Shown here piece after piece: positions 3,235-63,063 of a stretch of 64,000 nt of DNA. The stretch is from Planctomycetota bacterium. Its GTDB lineage: Bacteria; Planctomycetota; Phycisphaerae; Phycisphaerales; SM1A02. The notes under the pieces are model-generated. The model saw only the letters and a list, made by a program, of their open reading frames with translations, was not told the DNA's origin and ran no database searches. Location of the stretch: the NCBI GenBank assembly GCA_022574595.1, contig JACZRS010000001.1, positions 310,001-374,000 on the forward strand. The letters run 5' to 3'. Made by a program: the position numbers and the translations under genes. Numbering within the stretch: position 1 is the stretch's first letter; every line of letters begins with the position of its first letter.

Positions 3235-3289
3235 CCATCCCGACGCCCACGGATAGCCATCCCGACGCCCACGGATAGCAATCCGTGGG
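3220..3289 (+). repeat. Three 22-bp tandem repeats ending in a perfect palindrome (family B)
   Basis: Units start at 3220, 3242 and 3264, each close to GACGCCCACGGATAGCCATC. The third unit runs into a perfect hairpin: CCCACGGAT, loop AGCA, ATCCGTGGG (3268-3289). The first unit contains the stop codon of ubiX. Single related hairpins occur at 21954-21975 and 63006-63025. It could end ubiX transcription, although no clean T-run follows. Confidence 0.8.
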
Positions 3290-18929: not shown

Positions 18930-19071
18930 CAATTCTGTTACGTCGGCCGATTGAAACCGGTTTCACCAAGAGCCAGGCCACCACATTTGTGAAAGAAATT
19001 TCTAGCCCATTGGCTGACTTTCTTGTATTGTGTATGGGTCTCGAACAGAAATTTCAAATTGGAGTAGCGAT

Positions 19072-21924: not shown

Positions 21925-21953
21925 CTGATCCGCCTCCATCCTTCCCCCTTACG

Positions 21954-21975
21954 TCTACGGATAGCAATCCGTGGG
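21954..21975. repeat. Family B hairpin, copy 2
   Basis: ACGGAT, loop AGCA, ATCCGT, with the three outer positions also pairing through wobbles (TCT against GGG). It lies 30 bases after the protease-dockerin stop and may aid termination. Confidence 0.65.
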
Positions 21976-22003
21976 TTTCCATAACCACAAATATAAAAAC
22001 CAC

Positions 22004-22028
22004 GTAGAGTCAAGCCCTACGGCTAAAC
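22004..22028 (+). repeat. Family A hairpin, copy 2
   Basis: GTAGAG, loop TCAAG, CCCTAC (one mismatch in the stem), then the constant CGGCTAAAC. Confidence 0.7.
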
Positions 22029-22106
22029 ATGGCGTATCGCTCGTTACTCTACCCAGACCTTGCCTTAGCGGCAGCTCCGGCTTGTGAGATTCGCTAGACT
22101 GTATCC

Positions 22107-35669: not shown

Positions 35670-37208
35670 ATGAAAAGCTTGGCTGCACTTTGCATATTGG
35701 TCATATTATTCTCTGGCTTTTCTTCACATGCTTCGGCACAATGTCTCGCCAACGAAATCCAAAAACTCACAGCATCCGATCCGAGTCTTGGAGACCACTT
35801 CGGAACTTCAGTTATAATTCTTGGAGATATGGCCATCGTAGGAGCTAACAGGGCAAACGTTGAACAATACCTTGGAGGCGCTGCGTACGTCTTTCGTAAA
35901 GAGCCAATAACAAACCAATGGATCCAGGAGCAAAAAGTATTTGCTGCTGATCCCGGGCCTCAGGATGAATTTGCGCTTTCAGTAGCTATTAATCCCATCG
36001 ACCCCAATCTGATCATCATTGGAGCATGGGCGGATGATGATGCTGATGATTGTGGCAATGATTCGGCATGCGAATCAGGATCAGCTTATATCTTCCGCTT
36101 CGATCCCGATCTGGGTCTGTGGATCCAGGAACAAAAACTCACAGCTTCCGATGCTGAACCTCAAGACCGCTTTGGCTGGGCAGTTTCTATCTGGGGTGAT
36201 GTTGCGATCATCGGCGCAAGATTTGATGATGATCCATCTCAAAATAGCGGAACAGCATACGTTTTTCGTTATGATGAGAATACAGGGACTTGGAATGAAC
36301 AGCAGAAAATCTTATCTCCTGATCCGGGTACGTTCGGCACATCAATCTCCCTTGAAGGAGATGTTGTTTTAATCGGCGCATCAGCAGATCAGGAGTTTGG
36401 AATAGGATCAGGGGCTGCTTACATTTTTCGTATGGATCCTGACACGCAAATCTGGCAACTGGAGCAAAAGCTACTACCTGATGACCCCGTGCAGGGAGCT
36501 GGCTTCGGTCGTTCTGTTTCATTAGATGGTAACACAGCCTTGATAGCAGCGCCCGGGGCAGACGGCGTTTGGTTTCTGGAAGGCGCTGCGTACGCATTTA
36601 CCTATAACGGCCGGCAATGGACCCAACAACAAAAACTATTTGCTTCGGATGGCGAACCACTCGATCTATTTGGACGGGCTGTCTCTTTAGCAGGTAACAC
36701 CGCAGTAATTGCGGCTATCTTTGATGAGGTCAATGAACAGACTGTAGGTTCAACTTACATATTCACTTTCGATTCCCAACAATGGAACGAAACCGCCAAG
36801 CTATATGCATCGCAATTCGATGGAGCCGAAGCATTCGGCACACACGCAGCCACCGATGGCGAGAACGTCATCGTAGGAGCTAATTTCGCGGTTATTGATG
36901 GCAATAACGAAGCGGGCGCAGCATTCATCTTCGGCGGACTAGGTGATTGCAACAACAACGGCATAATCGACATCTGCGATATCGCAGATGGCAACGCAGC
37001 CGACAAAAATAGCAACGGCCTGCCTGATGAGTGCGATGACTTGCCTTGCCCATGGGATCTGGATAATAGCGGCAGCGTCGGCGTCGGCGATCTGCTTATG
37101 ATGTTCGCCCAATGGGGAACCCCCGGAATAGCCGACTTTAACGGAGACGGCATAGTCAACACTAGTGATCTACTAATCCTCCTAGCCAATTGGGGGCCGT
37201 GTCCGTAG
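35670..37208 (+). CDS. Secreted FG-GAP repeat protein with dockerin-like end
   Basis: The ATG at 35670 gives a signal peptide (MKSLAALCILVILFSGFSSH, cleavage near SAQC). The body, about residues 30-420, is a beta-propeller of FG-GAP-like repeats: each unit runs DxFGxSVxxxGDxAxVGA then AYVFRxDxxxxxWxxxQKL, at least six times. A Ca-binding linker (CNNNGIIDICDIADGNAADK) leads into two dockerin units (DLDNSGSVGVGDLLMMFAQW and DFNGDGIVNTSDLLILLANW). Predicted extracellular. The frame extends to 35571, but that part contains a palindromic repeat and is not a leader. A perfect hairpin lies at the ribosome site position. Two terminator-like hairpins follow. Confidence 0.85.
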   Translation: MKSLAALCILVILFSGFSSHASAQCLANEIQKLTASDPSLGDHFGTSVIILGDMAIVGANRANVEQYLGGAAYVFRKEPITNQWIQEQKVFAADPGPQDEFALSVAINPIDPNLIIIGAWADDDADDCGNDSACESGSAYIFRFDPDLGLWIQEQKLTASDAEPQDRFGWAVSIWGDVAIIGARFDDDPSQNSGTAYVFRYDENTGTWNEQQKILSPDPGTFGTSISLEGDVVLIGASADQEFGIGSGAAYIFRMDPDTQIWQLEQKLLPDDPVQGAGFGRSVSLDGNTALIAAPGADGVWFLEGAAYAFTYNGRQWTQQQKLFASDGEPLDLFGRAVSLAGNTAVIAAIFDEVNEQTVGSTYIFTFDSQQWNETAKLYASQFDGAEAFGTHAATDGENVIVGANFAVIDGNNEAGAAFIFGGLGDCNNNGIIDICDIADGNAADKNSNGLPDECDDLPCPWDLDNSGSVGVGDLLMMFAQWGTPGIADFNGDGIVNTSDLLILLANWGPCP

Positions 37209-37231
37209 GATATAACATTGTTCTAATGAAA

Positions 37232-37266
37232 GTGAGTCGTGGTGAAATCCCTCGGCTCGCTTTTTT
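37232..37266 (+). terminator. Terminator-like hairpin after the FG-GAP gene
   Basis: GTGAGTCG pairs with CGGCTCGC (two G-T wobbles) around a 13-base loop, followed by TTTTTT. It is 24 bases past the stop. Confidence 0.6.
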
Positions 37267-37289
37267 CTTGCATCCATATATGCGTTACA

Positions 37290-37319
37290 AGGCCGCAGGG
37301 CCTGTTTTTTTATTTTTTT
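37290..37319 (+). terminator. Second terminator-like hairpin
   Basis: AGGCC, loop GCAG, GGCCT, then GTTTTTTTATTTTTTT. The stem is short but the T-run is strong. Confidence 0.55.
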
Positions 37320-37775
37320 GAGATTTTCGCATGAATGCGCGCAGGATATTGCAGTAAACGGCGTATATACCACTGAGGAAACGCAGTCATATCTTTTTTT
37401 CTGGTTTTCAAAGGATTCATAGGCTCAGAAAGACATTTCTACTCGGCCCGCTTGATGCGCCGAAGGAGCCCCGAATATGCAGCGCATTTGCCTGCACAGC
37501 ATCGTCAACCCGCACTCCGGGTGTGGTGGAAGTTTAAGTTGCCGCAGCGATAGCCCACGGGAGGTCACTTTCAGTGATCGATTCGACGCTGCGCCAATTA
37601 CCGCACCCGGATTTTTAATTGCATTTTTCTTAGCAACTTGGGGGTGAACTGAACAATAGTGAAATACATCTAACCCAACCTCTTTCTCCTCCTTCGGCTC
37701 AGCAGATTGCTGAGCATACAGTCTGGGTTCCCACTCAGGCTGTTTTTTCTTTGTAAGGAGGATTTCACCCAAGCG

Positions 37776-38807
37776 CTAGGGCGCTTGAGATAGGATTTTC
37801 TCAATCAGCTCCGAATTATCCGGCAGGAGCTCGGATTTAACCAGTCTAGGTACAAGTTCTGCCCAGATTGGTTCACGAGCAAAGACACGCTTAAAAATGG
37901 GCAACGATTTCTCTACTTTGCCGCTACTGGCCAAAGTTACTGCGTGCCAAAATGGAATCTCTACAATGTGCGGAGCGATCTTCTCCGCAGCACTATATTC
38001 CTGACTGGCTTTGGCGAAGTCGGACTCTTCCATTGCTAAGTCACCTGCATTCATGTGCAGATATGCTCGTTGTAATTGCACGAGACGTTTTAGCTCCTGC
38101 ACAGGATGAGGATGATCTTCGATGCGCAAATCGAACTTGCGATCGATCCAGGGTTTGCCGGTCGATTCAGCTGCGACGATCAGGATTGCTGCGGATTGCT
38201 TACCACGAATATCGCCACCCACGCTTTGCGCTGCTTCAAGAGCTGCTAACATTTTATCCGCCAAGTCTCCTGTGGTTTGGCGGTAGGCTTTGGCCATGGC
38301 CGGCCAAACCTCATCACCTAACATTAAATTGGCCTGCACAGAGAATTGGTTCTCTGAGTCAGTAACGTGGCCAGCTGCGGCAATGCAGCGCTCGCCCGTG
38401 TGTGTGGCGACATTTCCGGATGCATCAATCATCGCCACCTGGCGCACTGCTTGCCCCTCATCGCCAGCTAGTAACGACCGTAGCGATTCGGATGCTGTGC
38501 GCCCTGCACGCATCAATTCCAGCCCAAGTGGCCCATACGCGGGATCAACAAATGATTGCGTAGCCACAGCTCCCACACCTGCTTCAGCCCAGGGAACGAT
38601 CGGACCAACCGAGAACCAATGCGACTGCACAGCTACGCCCATTTCACCCGTATCAGGATCACGAGCAACGATTGAATACGTAGCGACCGGTCGCTGAAAA
38701 TGTCGCTGGCTTGTGGGTATTGTGCGTTGCAGTTCTTGCTTAATTATGGCGCAACTTATCATTGTGAAACACCCAACAAGAGCGATGACTATTTGGAATT
38801 GCCGCAT
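37776..38807 (-). CDS. DUF1028 family lipoprotein with C-terminal TPR region
   Basis: N-terminal leader with lipobox-like ISC (CFTMISCAII). Residues about 40-265 are the DUF1028 domain, an Ntn-hydrolase-like fold of unknown activity: ATYSIVARDPDTGEMGVAVQ, WAEAGVGAVATQSFVDPAYG, and QANLMLGDEVWPAMA. The rest (about 265-340) is helical with TPR-like pairs (YLHMNAGDLAMEESDFAKAS). The start is supported by AAGGAGA nine bases upstream; that site, the start codon and the first codons lie in a 27-bp sequence repeated at 41562-41588. The GC-rich block begins just beyond, so the original promoter may have been displaced. Confidence 0.88.
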   Translation of the reverse strand: MRQFQIVIALVGCFTMISCAIIKQELQRTIPTSQRHFQRPVATYSIVARDPDTGEMGVAVQSHWFSVGPIVPWAEAGVGAVATQSFVDPAYGPLGLELMRAGRTASESLRSLLAGDEGQAVRQVAMIDASGNVATHTGERCIAAAGHVTDSENQFSVQANLMLGDEVWPAMAKAYRQTTGDLADKMLAALEAAQSVGGDIRGKQSAAILIVAAESTGKPWIDRKFDLRIEDHPHPVQELKRLVQLQRAYLHMNAGDLAMEESDFAKASQEYSAAEKIAPHIVEIPFWHAVTLASSGKVEKSLPIFKRVFAREPIWAELVPRLVKSELLPDNSELIEKILSQAP

Positions 38808-38822
38808 TGATCTGATCTCCTT
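38796..38822. repeat. 27-bp perfect direct repeat, left copy
   Basis: Identical, in the same orientation, to 41562-41588. It covers the start codon, first codons and ribosome site of the DUF1028 gene. The two copies bracket about 2.7 kb containing the GC-rich block. Confidence 0.85.
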
Positions 38823-38857
38823 CGCTCGGCTTCCCGTTTGCCTATATCTGTTTCAAT

Positions 38858-38914
38858 GTTATCACTAATCTCGGCGCGAGCGATCTGGTGATTTTCTTGG
38901 CCAATTGGGGATGA
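38858..38914 (+). pseudogene. Relic of a dockerin-gene 3' end
   Basis: In frame, ending at a TGA, this reads NVITNLGASDLVIFLANWG, matching the last helix of the dockerin proteins here (SDLLLLFANWG, SDLLILLANWG). There is no upstream gene in this frame, so it is a leftover tail at the left edge of the GC-rich block. Confidence 0.6.
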
Positions 38915-39024
38915 ACCAGAGAACTCGAATCGCTTCGTTGCCCGATGCGTTTGCTTGGCTCAGATCACTGGGCCGCGCCTATTAGCGGGTAGTATTGCGT
39001 TGTAGACAGCGCGTCAGTTCACGT

Positions 39025-39744
39025 TCAGTGTTTAGGCTCAGGTGCTTGTGCCTCTAGCAGCGCAAGGAACTGCGGCGGCATCGCATGCCCAACGTCTTGC
39101 GCGGAATGCGTCTCTTGCCACGCTTTGGAGTAGTCATGGTCGTAGTAGTGCCAAATGGCCAGACGTTCGTGCGCCAACCCATGATCAGGATCGAGCTGGA
39201 CAGCCCGCTGCATCTGTTGGATTGCGCTGTCCTGTTCGTTGCTCATTGCTAGTGTGAGTGCCAGGCTCACTCGCGCTTCGACGAACGTAGGGTCGATCTC
39301 GACCGCGCTGCGAAAGGCGGCAAGGGCGTGGACGTCTTTGGCATCGGACATTAACGCTTTGCCGAGCCCGTGATACAACTCAGCGATGTCCGGCGCGTTG
39401 CGGATGGCATCTGCATACGCTCTGATCGCGTTGGTGCTCTGATTGACATCGAGAAGGGCAGCGCCTTGTGTTGCCCGCTGCAATGCGCGTTGGACATTGC
39501 GCACCGTGAAAGCCTCCACTTCCACCAGCCCTGCGTAGAAATTCAACCCGCGAATCGCCTCTTGGAACTCCTCTTGCTCTCTTTGATCGCGCGTCGAGGG
39601 GGGCTTGGCCGCTGAGGCTTGGGATGTCGTTGGGTATTGTGGGTTCTCGGCCGTGGAAAAGACCGGAGCCGTTTCGCAACTGCCACTGAACATGGCAATC
39701 GCGGTCAAGGCAAGCGTTGTCGCGCAAAGTCGTGTTGTAGTCAT
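39025..39744 (-). CDS. TPR lipoprotein in the GC-rich block
   Basis: The ATG at 39744 with TAAGGAGA six bases upstream gives a lipoprotein leader (TTRLCATTLALTAIAMFSGS, lipobox SGSC). Three to four tetratricopeptide units follow at about residues 95-225 (LYHGLGKALMSDAKDVHALA, VSLALTLAMSNEQDSAIQQM and others), suited to protein binding. The longer frame up to 39891 is not needed. Base composition is GC-rich compared with genes on either side, as for the next gene, supporting shared recent arrival. It is divergent from the BNR-dockerin gene. Partner unknown. Confidence 0.82.
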   Translation of the reverse strand: MTTTRLCATTLALTAIAMFSGSCETAPVFSTAENPQYPTTSQASAAKPPSTRDQREQEEFQEAIRGLNFYAGLVEVEAFTVRNVQRALQRATQGAALLDVNQSTNAIRAYADAIRNAPDIAELYHGLGKALMSDAKDVHALAAFRSAVEIDPTFVEARVSLALTLAMSNEQDSAIQQMQRAVQLDPDHGLAHERLAIWHYYDHDYSKAWQETHSAQDVGHAMPPQFLALLEAQAPEPKH

Positions 39745-39750
39745 CGCAGG

Positions 39751-39757
39751 TCTCCTT
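39751..39757 (-). promoter_or_regulatory. Strong ribosome binding site
   Basis: AAGGAGA on the minus strand, six bases before the ATG at 39744; decides that start over the longer frame. Confidence 0.8.
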
Positions 39758-39958
39758 AAGCGAACCCGTCGGGCAAGGTGATGCCAAGACCATACTATAC
39801 CACCAGCCACTGAGAAAAGGGCCGAAATATCGCAAAAGGCCATTTTCGCGATGCCCAGTGAGTGAATTAGCCTGTTTTTTGGTGTACTCAAGCGGCCCCG
39901 AGTGGTAGGATGGCAGTTCGATGGGCGCGAGAACCCTGGTTATGACAAGGATCAGACG

Positions 39959-39965
39959 AAGGAGG
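39959..39965 (+). promoter_or_regulatory. Strong ribosome binding site
   Basis: AAGGAGG six bases before the ATG at 39972; decides that start over one at 39921. Confidence 0.85.
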
Positions 39966-39971
39966 TCGGCC

Positions 39972-41477
39972 ATGCTAGTGAATCTACGTTTTGCAAGAGT
40001 GTCGCGTCGTCGCATGGGGCCCGCTGCGGTGGCGTTGGCCTTGCTCACGGCGTCGGTTGCGACAGCACAAGCTCCCATCATCGGTCCGCAAGTTCGCATT
40101 GACGTGGGCGGGGGCACGTCCGTAGCGAACGAGACGACCGCATCGGCGAGTGAAATGGACCCTAACGTGGTCATAGCCGCCTGGAACGATTGGCGCGAGG
40201 CTCCGCCCGGGGGGACCATCCCCATCAGATTGGGTGTTGCACGCAGCTTCGACGGTGGCCAGACGTGGGAAGACTTGGTTATTCGTGCTCCGAAGGGATT
40301 CCAGGCATACTGCGAATGCGACCCGATGACCGCCTACGACGATCGCACGGGCACGCTCTGGGTGGGTGCGCTCGCCTACCCCGGCAGCGTGTTCGTCAGT
40401 CGGCTCGATCCCGGCCAGACGGAGTTTGAACCTCCGGTCGCCACGGTTACCGGTGGAAGCTTTGACAAATGCTGGATGGCGGCGGGGCCGCGCATGGGAG
40501 AGCCGGACTCCACCCGACTGTACATCGCGATGTCAGCCGGAATTCAGTGGTCCGACGATATGGGCGACACATGGACAAATCCGCTCAGCTTCGGCTGGGG
40601 CGTAGGATTCCTTCCCCGAGTAGGACCGAACGGTGAGGTGTATGTCGCCTATTGGGACTTCCTCGCCGGTCCCTACATGAGACTCAAACGGAGCCTCAAC
40701 GGCGGGGCAAGCTTCACCACCCACACGATCGCCGTGCGCATGGACACGTGGGGTTTCGAGGGCCTTCGTTTCCCCGGGCGGTTCCGCGTCCCGATCTTCG
40801 TGTATCTGGATGTTAGCCGAAAGACAGGCAAACTCTACGCAATCTACTTCGACACGACCGACGTGCACGAAAATGGCAGCAACGTGGATCTCTATTTCAC
40901 GACATCCGTCGATCAGGGAACCACCTGGACCACGCCGGTGGTGATCAACGGGGACAATGATCCACCGGGCGATCAGTTCTTCCCGTGGATCGAACTCGAC
41001 GAAGAGGACCGCATCCACGTTGTCTTCCTCGACTCTCGCCACACTGTTCAAAACGACAATACTCTTCATGGCATGATCGACGCGTACTACACTTACAGCG
41101 ACGACGACGGCGCAACCTGGAACGAGTTCCGTCTGACGCCGAAATCCTGGGACAGCTTCGATGACGGGGCACTCTATAATTCTGAGCAATTCCTCGGCGA
41201 CTACACGGGCCTGGCCGTCGCGGGCAATCGCGTTTATCCCGTCTACCTTGACACTACCGGCGGTGATCCGAATATTTATACGAACGTGATAGTGTTTCCA
41301 AGCAACGGTGATCTGAATGGTGACGGTGTAGTAAATACTTCTGATTTACTCATCTTGTTCAGTAGTTGGGGTTTATGCGTTGATTGTGCGCTTCCAGGTG
41401 ATTGCCCCGCGGATCTAAATGGCGATTGCACGGTAAATACAAGTGATCTGCTGGTTCTGTTTTCAAATTGGGGGTAA
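39972..41477 (+). CDS. Secreted BNR/sialidase-like repeat protein joined to a dockerin
   Basis: Signal peptide ends near TASVATAQA. The body is a beta-propeller with BNR/Asp-box motifs: SFDGGQTWE, SDDMGDTWT, SLNGGASFT, SVDQGTTWT and SDDDGATWN. The family includes exo-sialidases, but I cannot place a full set of catalytic Arg/Tyr/Glu residues, so activity is unproven. The C-terminus is a two-unit GC-type dockerin starting at about 41307. The propeller part is strongly GC-rich (41 of 60 bases in the row from 40201 are G or C), while the dockerin part uses the AT-leaning codons of the other dockerin genes, so the gene looks like a chimera with its joint near 41290. Confidence 0.85.
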   Translation: MLVNLRFARVSRRRMGPAAVALALLTASVATAQAPIIGPQVRIDVGGGTSVANETTASASEMDPNVVIAAWNDWREAPPGGTIPIRLGVARSFDGGQTWEDLVIRAPKGFQAYCECDPMTAYDDRTGTLWVGALAYPGSVFVSRLDPGQTEFEPPVATVTGGSFDKCWMAAGPRMGEPDSTRLYIAMSAGIQWSDDMGDTWTNPLSFGWGVGFLPRVGPNGEVYVAYWDFLAGPYMRLKRSLNGGASFTTHTIAVRMDTWGFEGLRFPGRFRVPIFVYLDVSRKTGKLYAIYFDTTDVHENGSNVDLYFTTSVDQGTTWTTPVVINGDNDPPGDQFFPWIELDEEDRIHVVFLDSRHTVQNDNTLHGMIDAYYTYSDDDGATWNEFRLTPKSWDSFDDGALYNSEQFLGDYTGLAVAGNRVYPVYLDTTGGDPNIYTNVIVFPSNGDLNGDGVVNTSDLLILFSSWGLCVDCALPGDCPADLNGDCTVNTSDLLVLFSNWG

Positions 41478-41487
41478 TCTAAGAACA

Positions 41488-41513
41488 CAGGGGCACAAGC
41501 CCTGCGGCTAGAC
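41488..41513 (+). repeat. Family A hairpin, copy 4
   Basis: CAGGG, loop GCACAAG, CCCTG, tail CGGCTAGAC. Same position after a dockerin-gene stop as the copy at 47998. Confidence 0.7.
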
Positions 41514-41518
41514 CCCGG

Positions 41519-41569
41519 TCAATTCTTACGATCATTAGCCCATCTGCCTGTTACCATTGCCGAATTGCC
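41519..41569 (-). pseudogene. Relic of the 3' end of a thioredoxin-like gene
   Basis: Read on the minus strand this gives GNSAMVTGRWANDRKN and a stop, which aligns codon for codon with the end of the intact thioredoxin-like gene (NGSSAKSKGRWANERKK, ending at 48028). There is no gene body upstream; the frame runs into the right copy of the 27-bp repeat. Confidence 0.7.
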
Positions 41570-41588
41570 GCATTGATCTGATCTCCTT
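41562..41588. repeat. 27-bp perfect direct repeat, right copy
   Basis: Same bases and orientation as 38796-38822. Here it carries a vestigial DUF1028 start region with ribosome site but no gene body. Confidence 0.85.
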
Positions 41589-41711
41589 AGCTTGCCGTAT
41601 TTGTTTTAACGGGTTACGGCGAGAGATCATTATATCTTGCGATACTCTAAATGCTATCAATATAGCGGTAATACTAGATAGGCCAGCCTTCCTGGCACGC
41701 GTGCTCTATTT

Positions 41712-44366
41712 CTATTGCTTTGGCATCATCGTTGCGGCCTTGTTGACTAGCTCAATGAATTCTTCTCGGTAGTTAGTTTTAGCCTTTGCTGGGGGAGGTA
41801 CTAAATTAACAGGCACAACAACGCCGCGGCTGTTCTCTATTCGTTTAGTTAATTCCTGAGTTGGCTCAGCTAAACCCTCGAGTTTGGCAGCCATGACTAT
41901 TGCTCTTGTTAAGCGATCGCGCAGGTCAGGATTTCCGTTTGTCAGTGAAGCAATCTCACTGTCATTGAGATCTGAATCTAACAGAGCGCGGATGTTAGCA
42001 GCTGCAAGTTCTGGCTTGGCAATTAGCGTGTAGTGAATGAAATCTTCCAGGAAGCGATGAGCTTGCCCCATATTGCTGCTGTTAGATAGTCCCGCCCTTG
42101 CAAGATATAGAACGCTTTCAAACGTCGCATTACCTTTGTGTGGCGAACCTCGCAGAAGCATGCCGAAGCTTGCGACTGCAGATGCGAACTTAAAATCAGC
42201 TGATGCATCTGCTAACTCAATTACTTCATCCATAATTGGATATTCCAGCAGCTTGCTGACATCGCCTTCTGGTTCCTTGTAGCGCAGCTTAACCGTCATC
42301 AATTCGCCGGTTGTCTTAGCAGCTTCGTTTGGCTTAACCTTCTCTTGATATTTCAGATCGTCTACAGGCGGAGTATCTGCGATAGTCAATTCTTCTTCGT
42401 CGCCAACAAGAACGATTTCATACAAAGCGGTAACTGTGTGACCCGCCCCGATCTCGCCAGCATCTTTAGTGTCATCATTAAAATCTTGGGCAGCCAGCAC
42501 GCGGTTTTCGTAACCAATGAGGCGATATGAGCTGACTACTGCGGGATTAAATTCGATTTGGATTTTCACATCTTTAGCAATTGTTACAAGTGTTCCGCCC
42601 ATTTCCTCGACGAGAACTTTGTTGGCTTCCCTAAGCGAATCGATATAAGCGAAGTTGCCGTTACCTGCATTTGATAGTTGTTCCATTTTGCTATCTTGCC
42701 AATTGCCTGTACCAAATCCGAGCACGCTTAGGAAGATGTGGCTTTTGCGTTTTTCTTCTATTAAGCGAACGAGGTCGCCATCGGATGAGATGCCGACGTT
42801 AAAGTCGCCATCGGTGCAGAGAATTACGCGGTTGACTCCACCTTCGATGAAGCTCTGGGCTGCGGTGTTATATGCAAGTTCGATACCGGCTCCGCCGTTG
42901 GTTGATCCGCCTGCGTGGAGGCGTTCAATGGCGCTCAAAATGACCTGTTTATCCGTGCAATAAGTTGATGGTAGTACGAGGCCTGAGGCTCCTGCGTATA
43001 CGACGATTGCTACACGGTCATCAACGGTTAGATTATTCAAGAGCAATTGCATTGATCGTTTAACCAGGGGCAATTTATTGGGTTGGTTCATCGAGCCGGA
43101 AACGTCAAGCAGGAATACAAGATTTGTAGCAGGCCTCATATCAGATTCGATCTCACGGCCTTTGATACCAATGCGCGCCAAACGATGCTTACTATTCCAC
43201 GGGCAGACTGCTACTTCAACGTGGGTAGCAAAGGGATGTTCATCAGTTTCCGTTGGGCCTGCGTAGTCATAATTAAAGTAGTTAAGTAATTCTTCAATAC
43301 GTACAGCATCAGGCGGCGGAAGCGAACCGCCATTAATAAAGCGCCGCATGTTGGCGTACGAAGCGGTATCTACATCAATAGAGAATGTAGATAAGGGCTG
43401 CTCACCAACTCGCATGAATTTGTTGTCAACAATGCGCGCGTAAGCTTCACGGGAAGAATCGCCTGTGAGTAAAAGCCCGCCAGAAATGTTCCAACGTGCT
43501 TCATCACCCGTTAAGATACGATATGACTCGCTAGAGTTTGGCTTAGTTCTGAGGCCAACATTTGCGCCTCCTCCCACTGCCACACCACCAACTCTACCTC
43601 CTGTGAGCTTGTAATTGAGATTCTTTCCTTGTTGCTGCGCTCTCAGTGCGTTCACTAAAGCCAAAGTTTTTGCGAGCTTTTTGTCTTGAACAGATAGATC
43701 TACTGAGCTGTAATCAGTAACCGGTGTGCCATCGTTTGCGACAACACGTCCATCCCGTATGCTTAAAGTCGGATTGGCTTTAAAGAGTTCATAAACTTCA
43801 TTAGTAGGACTTTTAGGACTATCAACTGAATGAAGACCAACAGGCCCATTACCATCCTTGACGGTCATTGGGGAAATGTTGAAACGTGCTGCTTCTTCTT
43901 GAACTCCAGGACTAAGACTAGTCGCTGATGGTGTTCTCTTTATATGCGCTTTTCCTACAACAGATGCATCCGCCGGCATATCTAGCACTACTAGATCTGC
44001 ATCTCCATCCTCCCAAAACGTAGGCAGAGATAGCGACAAAACCAAACAAGCTGCGGCAGCTAGTCCTGCGCTCATCCAGAATCTGCGTGAAGTAAGGAAT
44101 GACGATCGCGTTTCTACAATAGGTATTTGCTTCGCGCTCTGCTTTACAACTTCTCGTTGCGAATCATTTAGTGATAGCCTCGGCTCATCTGCAAACTCAC
44201 TTTCAAGCTGCTTAGCGGTTTGGCGAATCTCATCAACCACTTTGCGAGCTGCATCATCATCTGCGATTAGTGTTTCAACTTCCGCTGCTTCGGTTGCATC
44301 AAGCTCACCAAGCGCGTAAGCGGTCAGTTTGGGATCATCATATATATTGTTATTGGATTGGTTCAT
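41712..44366 (-). CDS. YfbK-like VWA membrane protein with anti-sigma-like N-terminus
   Basis: 884 residues. The first 60 residues (DDPKLTAYALGELDATEAAE onward) resemble the helical sigma-binding part of anti-sigma proteins; a membrane helix follows at about 97-115. Then come a disordered stretch, the VWF_N domain (ARIVDNKFMRVGEQPLSTFS, PPPDAVRIEELLNYF, about 310-400), a VWA domain with metal site DVSGSM, Thr in GGSTNGG and Asp in LCTDGDFN (about 414-600), and a DUF3520-like C-terminus. This is the YfbK architecture. Its start overlaps the stop of an ECF sigma gene by four bases (ATGA), so the pair is translationally coupled and it probably holds the sigma factor at the membrane. Confidence 0.9.
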   Translation of the reverse strand: MNQSNNNIYDDPKLTAYALGELDATEAAEVETLIADDDAARKVVDEIRQTAKQLESEFADEPRLSLNDSQREVVKQSAKQIPIVETRSSFLTSRRFWMSAGLAAAACLVLSLSLPTFWEDGDADLVVLDMPADASVVGKAHIKRTPSATSLSPGVQEEAARFNISPMTVKDGNGPVGLHSVDSPKSPTNEVYELFKANPTLSIRDGRVVANDGTPVTDYSSVDLSVQDKKLAKTLALVNALRAQQQGKNLNYKLTGGRVGGVAVGGGANVGLRTKPNSSESYRILTGDEARWNISGGLLLTGDSSREAYARIVDNKFMRVGEQPLSTFSIDVDTASYANMRRFINGGSLPPPDAVRIEELLNYFNYDYAGPTETDEHPFATHVEVAVCPWNSKHRLARIGIKGREIESDMRPATNLVFLLDVSGSMNQPNKLPLVKRSMQLLLNNLTVDDRVAIVVYAGASGLVLPSTYCTDKQVILSAIERLHAGGSTNGGAGIELAYNTAAQSFIEGGVNRVILCTDGDFNVGISSDGDLVRLIEEKRKSHIFLSVLGFGTGNWQDSKMEQLSNAGNGNFAYIDSLREANKVLVEEMGGTLVTIAKDVKIQIEFNPAVVSSYRLIGYENRVLAAQDFNDDTKDAGEIGAGHTVTALYEIVLVGDEEELTIADTPPVDDLKYQEKVKPNEAAKTTGELMTVKLRYKEPEGDVSKLLEYPIMDEVIELADASADFKFASAVASFGMLLRGSPHKGNATFESVLYLARAGLSNSSNMGQAHRFLEDFIHYTLIAKPELAAANIRALLDSDLNDSEIASLTNGNPDLRDRLTRAIVMAAKLEGLAEPTQELTKRIENSRGVVVPVNLVPPPAKAKTNYREEFIELVNKAATMMPKQ

Positions 44367-44923
44367 GTTGAAAACCTTTTGATATTTGCTGTAGTAGTGG
44401 GGGATTGATTTTCAGATGGGTTGAGTTGTTCGCGCAATTTCTTGAGGCCGGCGTGTATCATCACACCGACATTGCCTGGAGTTGTTTCTAGTACGTTTGC
44501 GATAGCTTTGTAACTAAGACCCCCATCAAACTTCAAACGTAGAGCTTCTTGTTGGTTGTCTGGTAGAGAGCTGAGCATTTGCAACATGCCTTGACTTTGC
44601 TCGGATTGCTCAGCTTTAACTGTTGAGTTGAAAGTCGTATGGGAAATGGCTGCGATTTTGTCATCTGCAATTAGTTTCATGCGGCCATCCTTTCTTTTCA
44701 CATCAAGAGCTCGATTCCTACAAACAGTAAAAAGCCACTGCTCAACTCTGCCATCTATCGAAGCGCGATCCGCTTCACAGAATCGCACAAAAACATCCTG
44801 CACGACATCGCGCGCACTTTCCACATCGCCGGTGAGCTTTGCTGCGTATCGCAGCAGCGGCGACTCATATCTCTCGAGGATAGAGTTAAGCTGAATCGTC
44901 AAATTCGGTCGGCCATCTGTCAC
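44363..44923 (-). CDS. ECF-type RNA polymerase sigma factor
   Basis: 186 residues starting at a GTG. Region 2: YESPLLRYAAKLTGDVESAR, DVVQDVFVRFCE and VEQWLFTVCRNRALD. Region 4: LPDNQQEALRLKFDGGLSYK followed by AIANVLETTPGNVGVMIHAG, the helix-turn-helix that reads the -35 element. The tail after residue 165 is polar and likely disordered. It overlaps the downstream VWA gene by four bases. It is the second sigma/VWA pair in this window; its region 4 differs clearly from that at 8417-9061, so the pairs are not a recent duplication. Probably controls envelope genes. Confidence 0.92.
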   Translation of the reverse strand: MTDGRPNLTIQLNSILERYESPLLRYAAKLTGDVESARDVVQDVFVRFCEADRASIDGRVEQWLFTVCRNRALDVKRKDGRMKLIADDKIAAISHTTFNSTVKAEQSEQSQGMLQMLSSLPDNQQEALRLKFDGGLSYKAIANVLETTPGNVGVMIHAGLKKLREQLNPSENQSPTTTANIKRFST

Positions 44924-45089
44924 GATCCATATTCCCGTTGGGATCTCAGCTTTGTGCTGAGGTCCCCTTCCAATAAGTAATACGTACGAGCGGGCAGAGT
45001 ATTAGTAAATAAATCAAAAAAGATGTGGCAGCTGCTGAGTTTGGTGAGTATCTAAGTCAAGATAGGCCATGAATTTCAAGCTTTACCTC

Positions 45090-45119
45090 TTGCTTGAGTT
45101 AGGTAAGGCTTGTTATGCT
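45090..45119 (+). promoter_or_regulatory. Possible sigma-70 promoter of the second protease-dockerin gene
   Basis: TTGCTT (45090-45095), 18 bases, TATGCT (45114-45119), 72 bases before the ATG. A motif match only. Confidence 0.3.
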
Positions 45120-45191
45120 GGCAATATTATCGCCCATTCGCTGACGCTCCAATGCAACAGATTCTCAATTGCCTTCGAAGGAATTTGATAC

Positions 45192-47990
45192 ATGCGCCTT
45201 ATTTCACATCATAATTGGAAGATATCAATATTTATAGTTGCGACCATAGCTGGCTGCGGGTTGATGATGCTCGGTGCGGTTGCCCAAGAAACTAAAAACA
45301 ATTCATCCGATGCAGCCAATAGCACTGTTGTTGATTTCAATCGCACAGCTGTGATTCAAGCGGCTGCCAATGCTGATGATCAAGTATTCCAGATCAAGCA
45401 AATCTCGTTAACAAATGAACTTGCAGTGAATCTGAACCTGACGCAGTTTTCAATTACAACTAGTGATACCCAGTTTGTATTAGGCTCGACTGGCAAAAAC
45501 ATTTTATCATTCGATCCATCTTCCGTCACTTTATTGCGCGGAGAAGTTCAGGACATACCCGGTTCGCATGTATTTCTTGCGGTAAGCGAAAATAGCGTAG
45601 CTGGCTATGTGGATCTCGCTGCGGGCAAACGGTTTCAAATAACGTCAAAAACAAGCTCAATTGCGCAGCTAAATAACCACCAGGTATTGGTCTTTGAAGC
45701 TACTGCTGTGATAGGGCCACTTCTGGGCGTAGATGTCTGTGGGCTTGATACATCTCAATCTAGACCAAGCCTGCCGAATTCGCCGGAAGGTTCGCCCCTT
45801 TCAGGTTTAACGAATAGCTCCACTCAAACAATCGAATTAGCCATCGAAACCGATTACGAATACTACTCGTTATTTAGCGATGTAGATTCAGCAGCTGAAT
45901 ATATTGTTCAGCTTTACGGGGCTGTAAGTGACATTTATTTGCGCGACGCAAATGCACGCTTTGAACTGACGTTTGTAAGAATTTGGGATACTGAGGATGA
46001 TCTTTTCAACGAGGATAATCCGTTGTTTCCGTTTCGTGATTATTGGAACGCAAATATGGGAAAAGTGCAGCGCGATGTGGCGCAGTTTCTTACCGGTAGA
46101 AGAAATCTTCCCTATGGCGGAGTGGCTTGGCTTGATGCTCTGTGCGGTGAACTAGGTTATTCAGTTTCAGGCTATGCGCTCGGTTCGTTCGTAGATCCAA
46201 ATGGATCAAGCACAGGTAACTGGGACCTAATTGTTACTTCGCACGAACTTGGACATAACTGCGGAACACTTCATACGCACGATTACAAAATTGACAGTTG
46301 TAATGTTGGTGATTTGCAGCGCGGCACAATAATGAGCTACTGCCACACCACTGCAGGTGGAAATGCAAATATCGACTTGCGATTCCATGAATTTATTAAA
46401 CCAATTATTTATAATTATGTATCAAGCGAACAATGCACAATTAATGATTGCAACGGTAACTACATAGATGATGCAATCGATATTTCAGAAGGTGATAGTA
46501 CTGATAATAATCTAAACGGCATACCCGATGAATGTGAAGACTGTAACCAAAACGGTCAACTTGATGATGAAGACATTTCATCGGGCTTTAGTGATGATCT
46601 AAATGGAAACTCCATACCCGATGAGTGTGAACCAGATTGCAATAGCAACGGCATGCCGGATGATCTGGATATTCTAGATAATACTAGCGAAGATCTAAAT
46701 GGCGACGGCGTGCCTGATGAATGCCAAGCTGATTGTAACGGTAACCAAATCGCAGATTACAACGAAATTCAATTAGATATGAGTCTGGATATTGATCGCA
46801 ATGTTGTGCTGGATTCCTGCCAGGATTGCGATAATGATGGGATCAACGATCTTGATGCACTTGGAGGCGCACACAACCTCTGGGCAGCAAGCTTGGATTC
46901 AAACAGATTAAGTCAATGCCACAGCGCTACGGGAGTGGTTGCTGAGCTTTCAGATGCAGGGCAAGTAAGTTCGCCACAGGATTTAGTTGTCCGTACTACA
47001 AATAAGCATGTACTTGTTACAAGTGCAACTGATAACCGTGTTGTTGAATTTGACGCGCAAGGAAATTACGTTGGTGATTTTGTGGCAGCAGGTGATGGCG
47101 GCTTAAGTATGCCGACCGGACTTACTTTCGCGTCAAACGGCAATCTACTTGTTGCGAGTTTCAATACAGATAACGTGCTGGAATATGATGGAAAAACCGG
47201 ATCATTCGTTGGTGAATTTGTTGCAATGGGTGATGGCGGGCTAATCGGACCCTTTGGAATAATCTTCGGCCCCAACGGCAATCTCTATTTAACTAGTACG
47301 AATAACCAAGTTATAGAATTTGATGGTCAAACTGGGGACTTTGTTGGCGTTCTTATTGCATTCCCTGATAATGGGGGATTAAATGACCCCAAGGGATTGC
47401 TCTTTAAGGATGATGGCAATCTACTTGTTACCAGCTTCGGTAGTGATCAAATCCTTGAATATGACGGTCAAAGTGGCGCATTCCTTGGGCAGTGGGATCA
47501 TGGGGGGAACGATAATGGATTCTGGGGGCTGAACGGCCCATGGGGTATCACAATAGGACCCGATGACAACGTGTATGTAGCTTCACATTTTGGAAATGCA
47601 GCAATACACATGTATCAAATGAGTACCGGCGCTTTTATGCGATCATTTTATGTGCTAGCGGTAGAAGCCCTGGTTAATCCCACCGGCTTGGGATTCGTTC
47701 CTGGTGATGATATAGATTGCAATTTCAATTTAATCCCAGATTCCTGCGATATAACCTCCGGCTACAGCTTGGATGTAAATTCCAACGGCATACCTGATGA
47801 GTGTGAACCTCCAAGCCCCGGCGATCTGAATGGTGATGGAGTTGTAAATACTACTGACCTGCTTATTTTGTTCAGTAGTTGGGGGCCATGCGCTGAATGT
47901 AAGCTTCCTGGAGATTGTCCTGCGGATTTAGATGGCGATTGCACGGTTAGCACAAGCGATCTGCTGCTTTTGTTTGCAAATTGGGGGTAG
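45192..47990 (+). CDS. Secreted metzincin protease with dockerin, paralog of 19072-21924
   Basis: 932 residues, GAAGGA about ten bases before the ATG, signal peptide ending near GAVAQ. Protease domain with HELGHNCGTLH (351-361) and Met-turn TIMSYC (379-384). The same order of parts as the first copy follows: Ca-binding linkers (NLNGIPDECEDCNQNGQLDD), NHL-like propeller repeats (SMPTGLTFASNGNLLVAS type) and a two-unit GC-type dockerin. Long stretches match the paralog (FRDYWNANM, GRRNLPYGG, DCDNDGIND), so both derive from one ancestor. Here the zinc motif has the usual Gly after Leu (HELGH) where the paralog has Ser. Predicted secreted peptidase docked at the cell surface. Confidence 0.9.
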   Translation: MRLISHHNWKISIFIVATIAGCGLMMLGAVAQETKNNSSDAANSTVVDFNRTAVIQAAANADDQVFQIKQISLTNELAVNLNLTQFSITTSDTQFVLGSTGKNILSFDPSSVTLLRGEVQDIPGSHVFLAVSENSVAGYVDLAAGKRFQITSKTSSIAQLNNHQVLVFEATAVIGPLLGVDVCGLDTSQSRPSLPNSPEGSPLSGLTNSSTQTIELAIETDYEYYSLFSDVDSAAEYIVQLYGAVSDIYLRDANARFELTFVRIWDTEDDLFNEDNPLFPFRDYWNANMGKVQRDVAQFLTGRRNLPYGGVAWLDALCGELGYSVSGYALGSFVDPNGSSTGNWDLIVTSHELGHNCGTLHTHDYKIDSCNVGDLQRGTIMSYCHTTAGGNANIDLRFHEFIKPIIYNYVSSEQCTINDCNGNYIDDAIDISEGDSTDNNLNGIPDECEDCNQNGQLDDEDISSGFSDDLNGNSIPDECEPDCNSNGMPDDLDILDNTSEDLNGDGVPDECQADCNGNQIADYNEIQLDMSLDIDRNVVLDSCQDCDNDGINDLDALGGAHNLWAASLDSNRLSQCHSATGVVAELSDAGQVSSPQDLVVRTTNKHVLVTSATDNRVVEFDAQGNYVGDFVAAGDGGLSMPTGLTFASNGNLLVASFNTDNVLEYDGKTGSFVGEFVAMGDGGLIGPFGIIFGPNGNLYLTSTNNQVIEFDGQTGDFVGVLIAFPDNGGLNDPKGLLFKDDGNLLVTSFGSDQILEYDGQSGAFLGQWDHGGNDNGFWGLNGPWGITIGPDDNVYVASHFGNAAIHMYQMSTGAFMRSFYVLAVEALVNPTGLGFVPGDDIDCNFNLIPDSCDITSGYSLDVNSNGIPDECEPPSPGDLNGDGVVNTTDLLILFSSWGPCAECKLPGDCPADLDGDCTVSTSDLLLLFANWG

Positions 47991-47997
47991 CCTAAGA

Positions 47998-48024
47998 CAG
48001 CGGGTCAAGCCCGCCGGCTAAACG
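47998..48024 (+). repeat. Family A hairpin, copy 5
   Basis: GCGGG, loop TCAAG, CCCGC, then CGGCTAAAC. Exact inverted match over 27 bases to 32351-32377. It lies between convergent genes. Confidence 0.8.
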
Positions 48025-48027
48025 CGG

Positions 48028-49191
48028 TTACTTCTTACGCTCATTAGCCCAACGACCTTTTGACTTTGCTGAACTGCCGTTTAGGCTGCGGTTGGCTGCG
48101 ACAATTTGTCCAAGAGTATTTGCGCTAAGTGATTTGGGATGACCTTGCCAGCGAACAATCCAATCACTACTGACAACAATAACGTGGGGTATGCCTCGAA
48201 TTCCGATGGCTTTTGTCATTGTCCTGCTGCTATCTAGCGCAAGATGATATCTAAACGTATCGAGGTTGATCCCTTTTGATGCATAAAGTTTGTTAAGACC
48301 AGTTTGAAACTTGCTATCGGTTTCAGCTGAAATACCAATGATCGCTACATCATCACGAAACTGATCCGCTAATTCATTTGTGTGAGGTATCGAGGCAACG
48401 CAGGGGGGACACCAAGTTGCCCAAAAATCTATTACCACAACTTTTCCCGCTGTATCGGGCTTGGAATTAAGCCAATGAGATACATACATATCCGGTGCGC
48501 GTTGGCCTCGAATATCCTTAGCGCTGGAAACCTTACCGGTAAAAGATGGGAAGTCCGTGTTAGCAAAAACTTGTGGTGCCGGCCGAGACTTGGGTTTTGC
48601 CAGCGGATCATGTTCTTCTGCTACAAGTTCCGCTAGAGCCAATTTTAATCCTTTTCGAGTTAATCCGTTGTAGCGTGTAGTACCGTTACGATCAATAAGA
48701 ATATTGACCGGCCGTTTGTAAGCTCCCAGCCCATCACAAAAACTCCCATCCGCATCGATTGCTATAGGTATTTCTAGCTCGCGTCTTTCTAAGAATTTAT
48801 CAACCGTAGCAGTTCCTTGGGGTGTATGTATGGCAACAAGTACAACATCATCGGGGTTGTAATCTTCAATTAGTCGTGGTGCGCGCATCACCCAGTTTCG
48901 CCCGGCTGCTGTCTTACTTGTCCAAGTTTGTATTACAACTACCTTGCCACGCAGCTTGCTGAAGTCCATCGGTTCGTGGTTATACCATTTGAGGTTTCCA
49001 GCAAACTCTGGCGGGGCGAATCCTATCCTCTGCTCGAGATTTCGGCGATCTTCCTTGTTAATGCGATCAAGCCAGCGTGGATTAACCTTCTTGCTCTCCT
49101 CTTGAGTGTCCGGAGAAGTTGTAGCTTTTGTTGCAACCAACGCTATAAGGCAAATTACAGTTGCAAGTTGAAGGTTTATTCGTTTGGGCAT
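48028..49191 (-). CDS. Tandem thioredoxin-like protein (TlpA/ResA type)
   Basis: 387 residues with an N-terminal signal (QLATVICLIALVATKATTS). Two thioredoxin-fold halves follow. The first (about 60-190) keeps the fold (LRGKVVVIQTWTSKTAAGRN, then YKRPVNILIDRNG) but has no CxxC. The second (about 230-365) has the active WCPPC in VVVIDFWATWCPPCVASIPH and the cis-Pro in IRGIPHVIVV. It should act in the periplasm as a thiol-disulphide reductase, the first half perhaps as a scaffold. The C-terminal tail GRWANERKK recurs as a relic at 41519-41569. It is convergent with the protease-dockerin gene. Confidence 0.88.
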   Translation of the reverse strand: MPKRINLQLATVICLIALVATKATTSPDTQEESKKVNPRWLDRINKEDRRNLEQRIGFAPPEFAGNLKWYNHEPMDFSKLRGKVVVIQTWTSKTAAGRNWVMRAPRLIEDYNPDDVVLVAIHTPQGTATVDKFLERRELEIPIAIDADGSFCDGLGAYKRPVNILIDRNGTTRYNGLTRKGLKLALAELVAEEHDPLAKPKSRPAPQVFANTDFPSFTGKVSSAKDIRGQRAPDMYVSHWLNSKPDTAGKVVVIDFWATWCPPCVASIPHTNELADQFRDDVAIIGISAETDSKFQTGLNKLYASKGINLDTFRYHLALDSSRTMTKAIGIRGIPHVIVVSSDWIVRWQGHPKSLSANTLGQIVAANRSLNGSSAKSKGRWANERKK

Positions 49192-49418
49192 GGTTCGATC
49201 CTTAACTAAAAGGTGCCTTGGGCAAACCAGAATTAGCTTTTTCTAGCAGTAGTATCGTAGGGCAAGCGAGGCATTGGGAGTTAAAAAATGCGGGTTATTA
49301 CATTTAGATCATAAGCAGATTATTGTTTACACACTCAAATAAATGGACTAATTCGTGCTTAAATTATTCCCTAGTCCAATACATTGCCTACGATCGGCCT
49401 TTATTTTACAGACCAAAT

Positions 49419-62982: not shown

Positions 62983-63005
62983 AGAAGGCTTCTCACCCCC
63001 GACGC

Positions 63006-63025
63006 CCACAGATAGCAATCCGTGA
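63006..63025. repeat. Family B hairpin, copy 3
   Basis: GAT, loop AGCA, ATC extended by CAC/GTG across one A/C mismatch; preceded by GACGCC as in the copies at 3220-3289. Confidence 0.55.
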
Positions 63026-63063
63026 GTTATCATGAAGATGGCATCATGGCATCAAGATCAATC

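What the first reader, a model, noticed from the sequence alone, without database searches (positions are those of the whole stretch)
41290..41569. Duplicated cassette: dockerin end, hairpin element and tail of a thioredoxin gene
From about 41307 to 41569 the sequence aligns with 47820-48080: two dockerin units, stop codon, family A hairpin, and then the last 16 codons of the thioredoxin-like gene on the other strand. At 48028 that gene is intact; at 41519 only its tail is left. So a dockerin 3' module moved together with its convergent neighbour's end, and a foreign propeller was joined upstream. This suggests how dockerin tails spread among unrelated secreted proteins.
Basis: seen in the sequence. 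Interest (0 to 1): 0.65.

Follow-up and report, generated by a model that had tools for sequence, protein, structure and literature searches.

The report
Foreign propeller grafted onto resident dockerin
In this bacterium a gene for a secreted propeller protein, foreign by its composition, was joined in frame to a second copy of a local gene's docking tail, and about half of the GC-rich dockerin-tailed genes surveyed show a similar break, which suggests how such tails spread.

Summary
41297-41569 is a second copy of 47810-48080: dockerin, stop, hairpin and the end of the convergent thioredoxin-like gene. No third copy was found. The interpretation needs turning round. In a sister genus (G105) the order is DUF1028 - reprolysin/dockerin - thioredoxin - MATE. 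Here 6.4 kb lies between DUF1028 and the reprolysin gene, and the copied thioredoxin tail is fused, at GAA[C/T]TGCCG, to a 31-bp copy of the DUF1028 gene start. That is the joint expected of a duplicated DUF1028-reprolysin-thioredoxin block. So the tail stayed and the body was replaced: a GC-rich TPR + propeller pair stands where the reprolysin body was. Propeller body GC3 is 0.71, its dockerin 0.37. The dockerin is 82% identical to the reprolysin gene's, but 62% (background level) to that of the propeller's own paralog. Of 32 surveyed GC-rich dockerin genes of this genome 16 show a GC3 drop above 0.2 at the dockerin, against 0 of 33 in relatives. In-place tandem duplication is the favoured route; re-entry of a diverged version of the block is the main rival, and homogenisation of dockerins may explain part of the genome-wide pattern.

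The parts
37776..38807 (-). DUF1028 gene; its start is the left edge of the rearrangement
   Evidence: PF06267 E 3.8e-70; ortholog beside the reprolysin gene in G105 and G036
38796..38826 (+). left 31-bp repeat: first codons, start codon and ribosome-binding region of DUF1028
   Evidence: 38800-38870 is similar to the G105 and G036 DUF1028 upstream regions, 0/300 shuffles as good in each
38879..38914 (+). orphan dockerin tail (SDLVIFLANWG stop) at the left edge of the foreign segment
   Evidence: matches many dockerin ends, mostly at 78-87%; translation
39025..39891 (-). TPR gene, GC3 0.62, usual neighbour of the propeller gene (ORF start is the longest; true start may be inside)
39921..41477 (+). 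PROP: BNR/sialidase-like propeller gene with dockerin; chimera
41297..41477 (+). dockerin of PROP with its linker, second copy of that of the reprolysin gene; dockerin GC3 0.37
41482..41517 (+). diverged copy of the hairpin
41519..41569 (-). remnant of the last codons of the thioredoxin-like gene (GNSAMVTGRWANDRKN)
41562..41592 (+). right 31-bp repeat: second copy of the DUF1028 start, joined to the thioredoxin tail
41712..44366 (-). VWA (YfbK-type) gene, also between DUF1028 and REPRO here; no match in G036 or G105 at E <= 1e-80
44363..44923 (-). ECF sigma factor gene, beside the VWA gene
45192..47990 (+). REPRO: M12B reprolysin-like metallopeptidase + NHL-type propeller + dockerin, source gene of the tail
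47810..47990 (+). source dockerin with its linker
47992..48023 (+). source hairpin, one of a dispersed family
48028..49191 (-). TRX: intact AhpC/TSA thioredoxin-like gene, source of the tail remnant

Best explanation
PROP is a chimeric gene. The resident block DUF1028 <- -> REPRO -> <- TRX was duplicated in place by recombination between GAATTGCCG in the DUF1028 start and GAACTGCCG in the last codons of TRX. Copy 1 then ended in REPRO dockerin, hairpin and TRX tail, joined head to tail to a DUF1028 start (shown: joint, 31-bp repeat, order in G105; inferred: in-place tandem duplication). Later a GC-rich segment carrying the TPR-PROP gene pair replaced the REPRO body of copy 1, joining in frame at the linker before the dockerin, so the foreign propeller gained a resident docking tail (shown: composition break and dockerin relationship; inferred: order and mechanism). 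Copy 2 still carries REPRO and TRX. The dockerin most likely serves to attach the secreted propeller to a cohesin-bearing surface complex (from family knowledge and the published planctosome model, not tested).
For: Order without the insert in G105 contig C74; DUF1028 beside REPRO also in G036 contig C10. Only two copies of the dockerin-hairpin-TRX tail. Joint TRX tail|DUF1028 start, and a 31-mer found only at these two places. PROP body GC3 326/459 v dockerin 22/59, Fisher p 6e-7; in the 8 dockerin-tailed homologs examined body and tail differ by at most 0.08, including the own paralog on C31 (0.38/0.40). PROP dockerin 82% to REPRO, next best 72%, 62% to that of its own body paralog; mean of pairs with unrelated bodies 62.0%. 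TPR and PROP lie side by side in 11 of the 13 genomes with PROP, of 61 searched, so the pair is a unit of its own. 38800-38870 resembles the sister genus' DUF1028 upstream region (0/300 shuffles), so the left edge is old chromosome.
Against: Outside the microhomology the DUF1028-start repeat differs at 3 of 36 aligned sites (gaps left out), the TRX tail at 11 of 43: P about 0.009 if both are of one age. Nothing of the REPRO body survives in copy 1. Similarity between the two DUF1028 upstream copies past the 31-mer is not significant (56 and 129-134 of 500 shuffles; 60 of 300), and 41566-41711 resembles the sister intergenic region only weakly (11/300 G105, 52/300 G036). REPRO beside TRX rests on G105 and the window: in G036 another dockerin gene follows REPRO and TRX lies on another contig, and in 9 other DUF1028 loci read no full-length REPRO stands beside DUF1028. 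No PROP relative above 65% aa among 400 genomes of the order; no second genome of the genus was found among those searched.
Confidence: 0.55

Rival explanations
1. Re-entry: in a congeneric strain the REPRO body was replaced by TPR-PROP at the orthologous block. That diverged version then entered this genome by homologous recombination at DUF1028 on the left and by the short shared sequence on the right.
For: Explains the two apparent ages: nearly identical 31-mer, but dockerin dS 0.78 and TRX tail 26% different. Composition of the dockerin is native-like.
Against: Needs an unseen donor that itself carries the chimera; no second genome of the genus was found among those searched. DUF1028 shows no clear composition or identity break.
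Confidence: 0.25
2. One replicative template-switching event: incoming TPR-PROP DNA copied the REPRO dockerin, hairpin and TRX tail and then jumped back to the DUF1028 start.
For: Short shared sequence at the joint and direct repeats near both edges.
Against: Predicts that native DUF1028 upstream sequence stops at 38826 on the left, but similarity to the sister genus continues to about 38850; same age problem.
Confidence: 0.1
3. One reading: a mobile dockerin 3' cassette was copied behind a foreign propeller already sitting at this locus.
For: The copy includes 3' flank and neighbour's end; another pair of loci shares 688 bp of dockerin plus downstream DNA.
Against: The right end lands on the DUF1028 start, i.e. 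the other end of the same ancestral block; no third copy in the genome.
Confidence: 0.07
4. For the genome-wide pattern: dockerins are homogenised by recombination among resident dockerins, or GC-rich bodies are not foreign but GC-raised by conversion between their internal repeats, so no tail capture is needed.
For: One body family supplies 7 of the 13 break-at-dockerin genes; the four of its members scanned are FG-GAP repeat proteins. Dockerins of unrelated bodies are rarely above 90% identical (1 of 1308 near-full-length pairs), so most captures are not recent, yet some bodies keep GC3 near 0.88.
Against: Bodies without FG-GAP repeats break near the dockerin too: subtilase, amidohydrolase, PROP within 12 codons, DUF7453 30 codons inside it. 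PROP's dockerin is traced to one gene together with its flank.
Confidence: 0.4

Closest known systems
Planctosome: cohesin/dockerin system proposed for freshwater Planctomycetes of the family Nemodlikiaceae (PMC6461901; passages read)
   Same: Dockerin-tailed M12B reprolysin-type peptidases in a planctomycete; REPRO here has that make-up.
   Different: The passages seen propose a complex, not how tails reach new proteins; no cohesin was sought here.
KLIKK proteases of Tannerella forsythia (PMC4404884; abstract and section list seen)
   Different: That the domain is a type IX secretion tail is recalled, not read; here the tail is a dockerin, and its source gene, flank and joint can be traced.
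Tandem duplication at short homologies and homology-facilitated illegitimate recombination in bacteria (general knowledge; PMC6382021 seen only in a search listing)
   Same: Joint at a 9-bp shared sequence, head-to-tail order of block ends.
   Different: Copy 1 afterwards received a foreign gene body.
Type I dockerins of cellulosomes (solved chains 2y3n, 1ohz, 2ccl)
   Same: Duplicated calcium-loop helix module at the C-terminus.
   Different: On a sialidase-like propeller and a metallopeptidase, not on cellulases.

Membership tests
Type I dockerin | Two DxNGDG-type loop/helix repeats at the C-terminus, recognised by PF00404 | tested here: met
   PROP 463-513 E 6.8e-5, 23.4 bits v cut-off 22.9; REPRO 20.4 bits, just under the cut-off; PROP matches solved dockerin 2y3n E 3.9e-7
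Type I dockerin | Binds a cohesin partner encoded by the same organism | not tested
   no genome search for cohesins was run; none among the 15 window proteins scanned
Tandem segmental duplication | Single-copy block with the same ends in a relative | tested here: met
   whole block in G105 C74; DUF1028-REPRO part only in G036 C10; not in 9 other DUF1028 loci
Tandem segmental duplication | Joint of unit end to unit start, in order and orientation | tested here: met
   41551-41592
Tandem segmental duplication | Both copies of the whole unit present, of equal divergence throughout | tested here: not met
   REPRO body absent from copy 1; divergence uneven, P 0.009. So it is described as the remains of a duplication, not as a standing one
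Mobile element or gene cassette | Recombinase gene in the segment, or several copies with the same ends | tested here: not met
   31-mer only twice in the genome; the two genes of the segment are TPR and PROP. Recombination sites such as attC were not searched
Horizontally acquired gene | Composition unlike the host genome | tested here: met
   GC3 0.71 (PROP body) and 0.62 (TPR) v 0.37-0.55 in the 27 other window genes tabulated
Horizontally acquired gene | Tree or identity pointing to a donor | tested here: inconclusive
   best identities 61-65% in several genera, own paralog 59%; no tree was built

The most novel reading that the evidence does not exclude
Dockerin 3' ends act as recombination landing sites: incoming genes for secreted proteins are repeatedly joined in frame to a resident dockerin, which enrols foreign proteins in the host's cohesin-based surface complex. 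This locus is a fossil in which the source gene, the joint and the leftover neighbour's tail can all still be read.
Probability: 0.45. Interest if true: 0.75.

Novelty: new variant of a known kind. Interest (0 to 1): 0.6.

Why it matters
This 4.1 Mb genome holds at least 152 dockerin matches (capped list), on proteins of many kinds. How unrelated proteins come by the same tail is an open question. This locus lets one case be read step by step, and the body/tail composition test gives a simple, countable sign of tail capture that can be applied to any genome with terminal docking or sorting domains.

Tried and rejected
The genome-contig scan with TRX kept 80 loci with only distant thioredoxins at the top (46% over part of the query), of no use. 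Rfam (37000-49500) and tRNA (36000-50000) scans found nothing, so no tRNA integration site. Hairpin folding: trimmed copies z -0.98 and -0.72, longer stretches z -2.37 (PROP) and -0.64 (source), so no claim is made for it. A donor-derived 5' half of DUF1028 was considered because of a local GC rise; GC3 shows no sharp break. Misassembly is not excluded by reads, but the segment lies inside a 570-kb contig with native genes on both sides. Of the in-register 3'-flank matches (first 41 printed) seven pairs of loci were compared whole: C7/C9 is reported; L373/L314 (repeats) and L364/L377 (contig edge, the one pair above 90%) were set aside; the L345 and L364 matches to C7/C9 share a shorter flank. 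Pairs within L383, L380 and L318 were not followed. Novelty searches, listings read only: dockerin + planctomycetes (24 papers); dockerin + horizontal gene transfer + domain shuffling (3); dockerin + gene conversion (1); dockerin + phycisphaer (4); C-terminal domain + type IX secretion + horizontal gene transfer + acquired (20, 10 listed); homology-facilitated illegitimate recombination + microhomology (4); dockerin + cohesin + noncellulosomal + recombination (13, 8 listed); chimeric genes + GC content + sorting signal and others (0). No listed title or abstract start described dockerin tail capture; only PMC6461901 (passages) and PMC4404884 (abstract, section list) were opened. Rows dropped before counts: dockerin genes with bodies under 120, 150 or 180 codons, and all but one row per distinct 120-nt tail. 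One search scored 150 of 330 candidates, so more dockerins exist than were surveyed; one listed gene (C23:308286) was left out of the fetch.

Full report
What is there. The two segments align as described. 41297-41484 and 47810-47997 share 154 of 188 bases without a gap, the dockerin codons 142 of 174 bases and 48 of 58 residues. Past the stop codon the hairpin and the last codons of the thioredoxin-like gene (TRX) also align beyond chance (0 of 500 shuffles as good for each). Upstream of 41297 there is no similarity (341 of 500 shuffles as good). A genome search with the source segment listed 51 matches (40 of 159 candidates scored); besides the source itself only 41297-41570 runs through dockerin, hairpin and TRX tail, the other dockerin matches end at or near the stop codon, and 17 places match the hairpin alone at 92% or more. 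A search with hairpin and tail alone, all candidates scored, agrees.

A repeat scan of the window shows a 31-bp direct repeat, 38796-38826 and 41562-41592, 30 of 31 identical. Genome searches with either side found it only at these two places. The left copy is the start of the DUF1028 gene: its first codons, start codon and ribosome-binding region. The right copy begins where the TRX remnant ends. TRX has GAACTGCCG there, DUF1028 has GAATTGCCG and the joint has GAATTGCCG.

Ancestral order. DUF1028 was searched in 61 and then 181 genomes; the best matches, 83% and 81%, are two genomes of genus g37. Contig C74 of G105 reads DUF1028 <- -> REPRO -> <- TRX <- -> MATE in 7.1 kb. In G036 contig C10 has DUF1028 <- -> REPRO, but the next gene is another dockerin gene and TRX lies at the end of a different contig. 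In 9 other DUF1028 loci that I read no full-length REPRO lies beside DUF1028. So the whole block rests on G105 and on the window itself, where the same genes stand in the same order, with these between DUF1028 and REPRO: an orphan dockerin tail (38879-38914), a TPR gene, the propeller gene PROP with the copied dockerin, hairpin and TRX tail, the DUF1028-start copy, a VWA gene and a sigma-factor gene. The VWA gene has no match at E <= 1e-80 in G036 or G105 (4 of 12 genomes searched have one). The TRX-tail|DUF1028-start joint is what a head-to-tail duplication of the block from DUF1028 start to TRX end would make.

The body is foreign, the tail is not. TPR and PROP have GC3 of 0.62 and 0.67; the 27 other window genes tabulated range from 0.37 to 0.55. 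Inside PROP the body has 326 of 459 and the dockerin 22 of 59 GC-ending codons (p 6e-7), with the break about 12 codons before the modelled dockerin start. In the eight dockerin-tailed homologs examined, body and dockerin differ by at most 0.08. The PROP dockerin is 82% identical to that of REPRO, 72% to the next, and 62% to the dockerin of PROP's own paralog on contig C31 (body 58% aa); the mean is 62.0% for pairs with unrelated bodies and 71.4% for 97 pairs with bodies at least 45% alike. PROP relatives occur in 13 of 61 genomes at E <= 1e-30, and TPR lies beside PROP in 11 of these 13. In G009 and the four f4 genomes the match to PROP ends at residue 457-469, before the dockerin; the tails of G009 and G051 were read and show other C-termini. 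So this is an old gene pair whose propeller changes tails.

How it most likely happened. I favour an in-place tandem duplication of the block, followed by replacement of the REPRO body in copy 1 by a GC-rich TPR-PROP segment joined in frame before the dockerin. The orphan dockerin tail on the far side of TPR suggests that dockerin sequence was involved at both edges of the incoming segment; that step is inference. Against a single age for everything: the DUF1028-start repeat differs at 3 of 36 sites outside the microhomology (gaps left out), the TRX tail at 11 of 43 (P 0.009). The main rival, entry of an already rearranged and diverged version of the same block from a congeneric strain, explains this better but needs an unseen donor. 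A template-switching event fits less well, because the left edge keeps sequence like the sister genus' DUF1028 upstream region to about 38850 (0 of 300 shuffles).

Is it general? A profile search listed 152 dockerin matches in the genome (150 of 330 candidates scored). From the fetched stretches 154 dockerin-ended genes were read. In 130 with bodies of at least 180 codons, observed dockerin GC3 follows the amino-acid-corrected expectation from the body with slope 0.27, while the 60-codon stretch just before the dockerin follows with slope 0.95 (95% interval of the difference 0.52-0.83). Of 33 GC-rich bodies (as defined), 32 have a dockerin below expectation, and 13 have a control segment below expectation. 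By the definitions, with PROP included, 16 of 32 (bodies of 150 codons or more) or 15 of 31 (180 or more) have a drop above 0.2, and the control segment in none. Of 23 significant GC3 change points in 130 genes, 13 lie within 20 codons of the dockerin start, with 2.2 expected; ten do not, and three of the 13 (g45, g84, g130) go the other way, poor to rich. Counted by body family: 15 of 15 GC-rich families have a lower dockerin, 7 of 15 a lower control; slope over 53 families 0.36 v 0.97; the 13 genes fall in 7 families, 7 of them in one. In 36 dockerin-ended genes of relatives held in 111 loci the slope is 0.82 and 0 of 33 GC-rich bodies have such a drop (Fisher p 9e-7 against 16 of 32). These loci were fetched for other reasons and come from many genomes, so that slope is partly between genomes; but it shows that dockerins as such are not held at low GC3. 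Ten of the stronger cases, picked by hand and without PROP, carry FG-GAP (four), subtilase, DUF7453, LVIVD, beta-helix, amidohydrolase and DUF5122 bodies.

Limits. Most dockerins of GC-rich genes are not recent copies: of 1308 near-full-length dockerin pairs with unrelated bodies 11 reach 85% and one passes 90%, at a contig edge, yet some bodies keep GC3 near 0.88. Homogenisation of dockerins by recombination, or GC-raising conversion inside repeat proteins, could make part of the genome-wide pattern. Nearest dockerins belong to a body relative more often than chance (29 of 106, 6.7 expected), so tails and bodies are not fully independent. The assembly is a draft in 31 contigs with 3% estimated contamination.

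What it resembles. Dockerin-tailed M12B peptidases were proposed as parts of a planctosome in freshwater Planctomycetes (PMC6461901, passages), and REPRO has that make-up. A near-identical C-terminal domain on a set of proteases is known from Tannerella (PMC4404884, abstract). I found no report of dockerin tail capture in the searches named under Tried and rejected.

Noticed in passing
L329 (C7:3257-6306) 310-995 and L336 (C9:23144-30300) 2056-2742: A second shared 3' segment: latter part of a dockerin plus about 580 bp downstream, 88% over 688 bp, between a 460-aa FG-GAP gene and a 67-codon dockerin ORF.
   Followed up: partly
L350, L329, L318, L340, L330 (genes g78, g87, g104, g120, g131): Five dockerin genes share upstream DNA (65-79%) and signal peptide (77-84%), but judged by the residues that follow they carry about three kinds of body: gene starts may be shuffled as well as gene ends.
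   Followed up: partly
L075 about 1500-1545 (C21:171570) and L076 about 1500-1545 (C8:1793): Two further orphan dockerin tails in intergenic DNA, both starting at the same Ser-Asp-Leu codons as the relic at window 38879.
   Followed up: partly
window 3217-3284, 21945-21982, 62996-63033: Another dispersed hairpin-like repeat family (CCCACGGATAGCAATCCGTGGG-like), separate from the one at 47992.
   Followed up: no
window 19030-21924: Second reprolysin-NHL-dockerin paralog; its dockerin is the next best match to 47800-48090 at 73%, and a relative of the hairpin lies at 22000-22031.
   Followed up: no
L145 (G030) and L146 (G031), downstream of TRX: In two other genera the TRX gene also converges on a dockerin-tailed gene that is not a REPRO match: the slot beside TRX seems to be reused by dockerin genes.
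   Followed up: partly
window 41712-44923: YfbK-type VWA gene and ECF sigma factor stand in the DUF1028-REPRO interval here; the VWA gene was not found in G036 or G105 at E <= 1e-80.
   Followed up: partly
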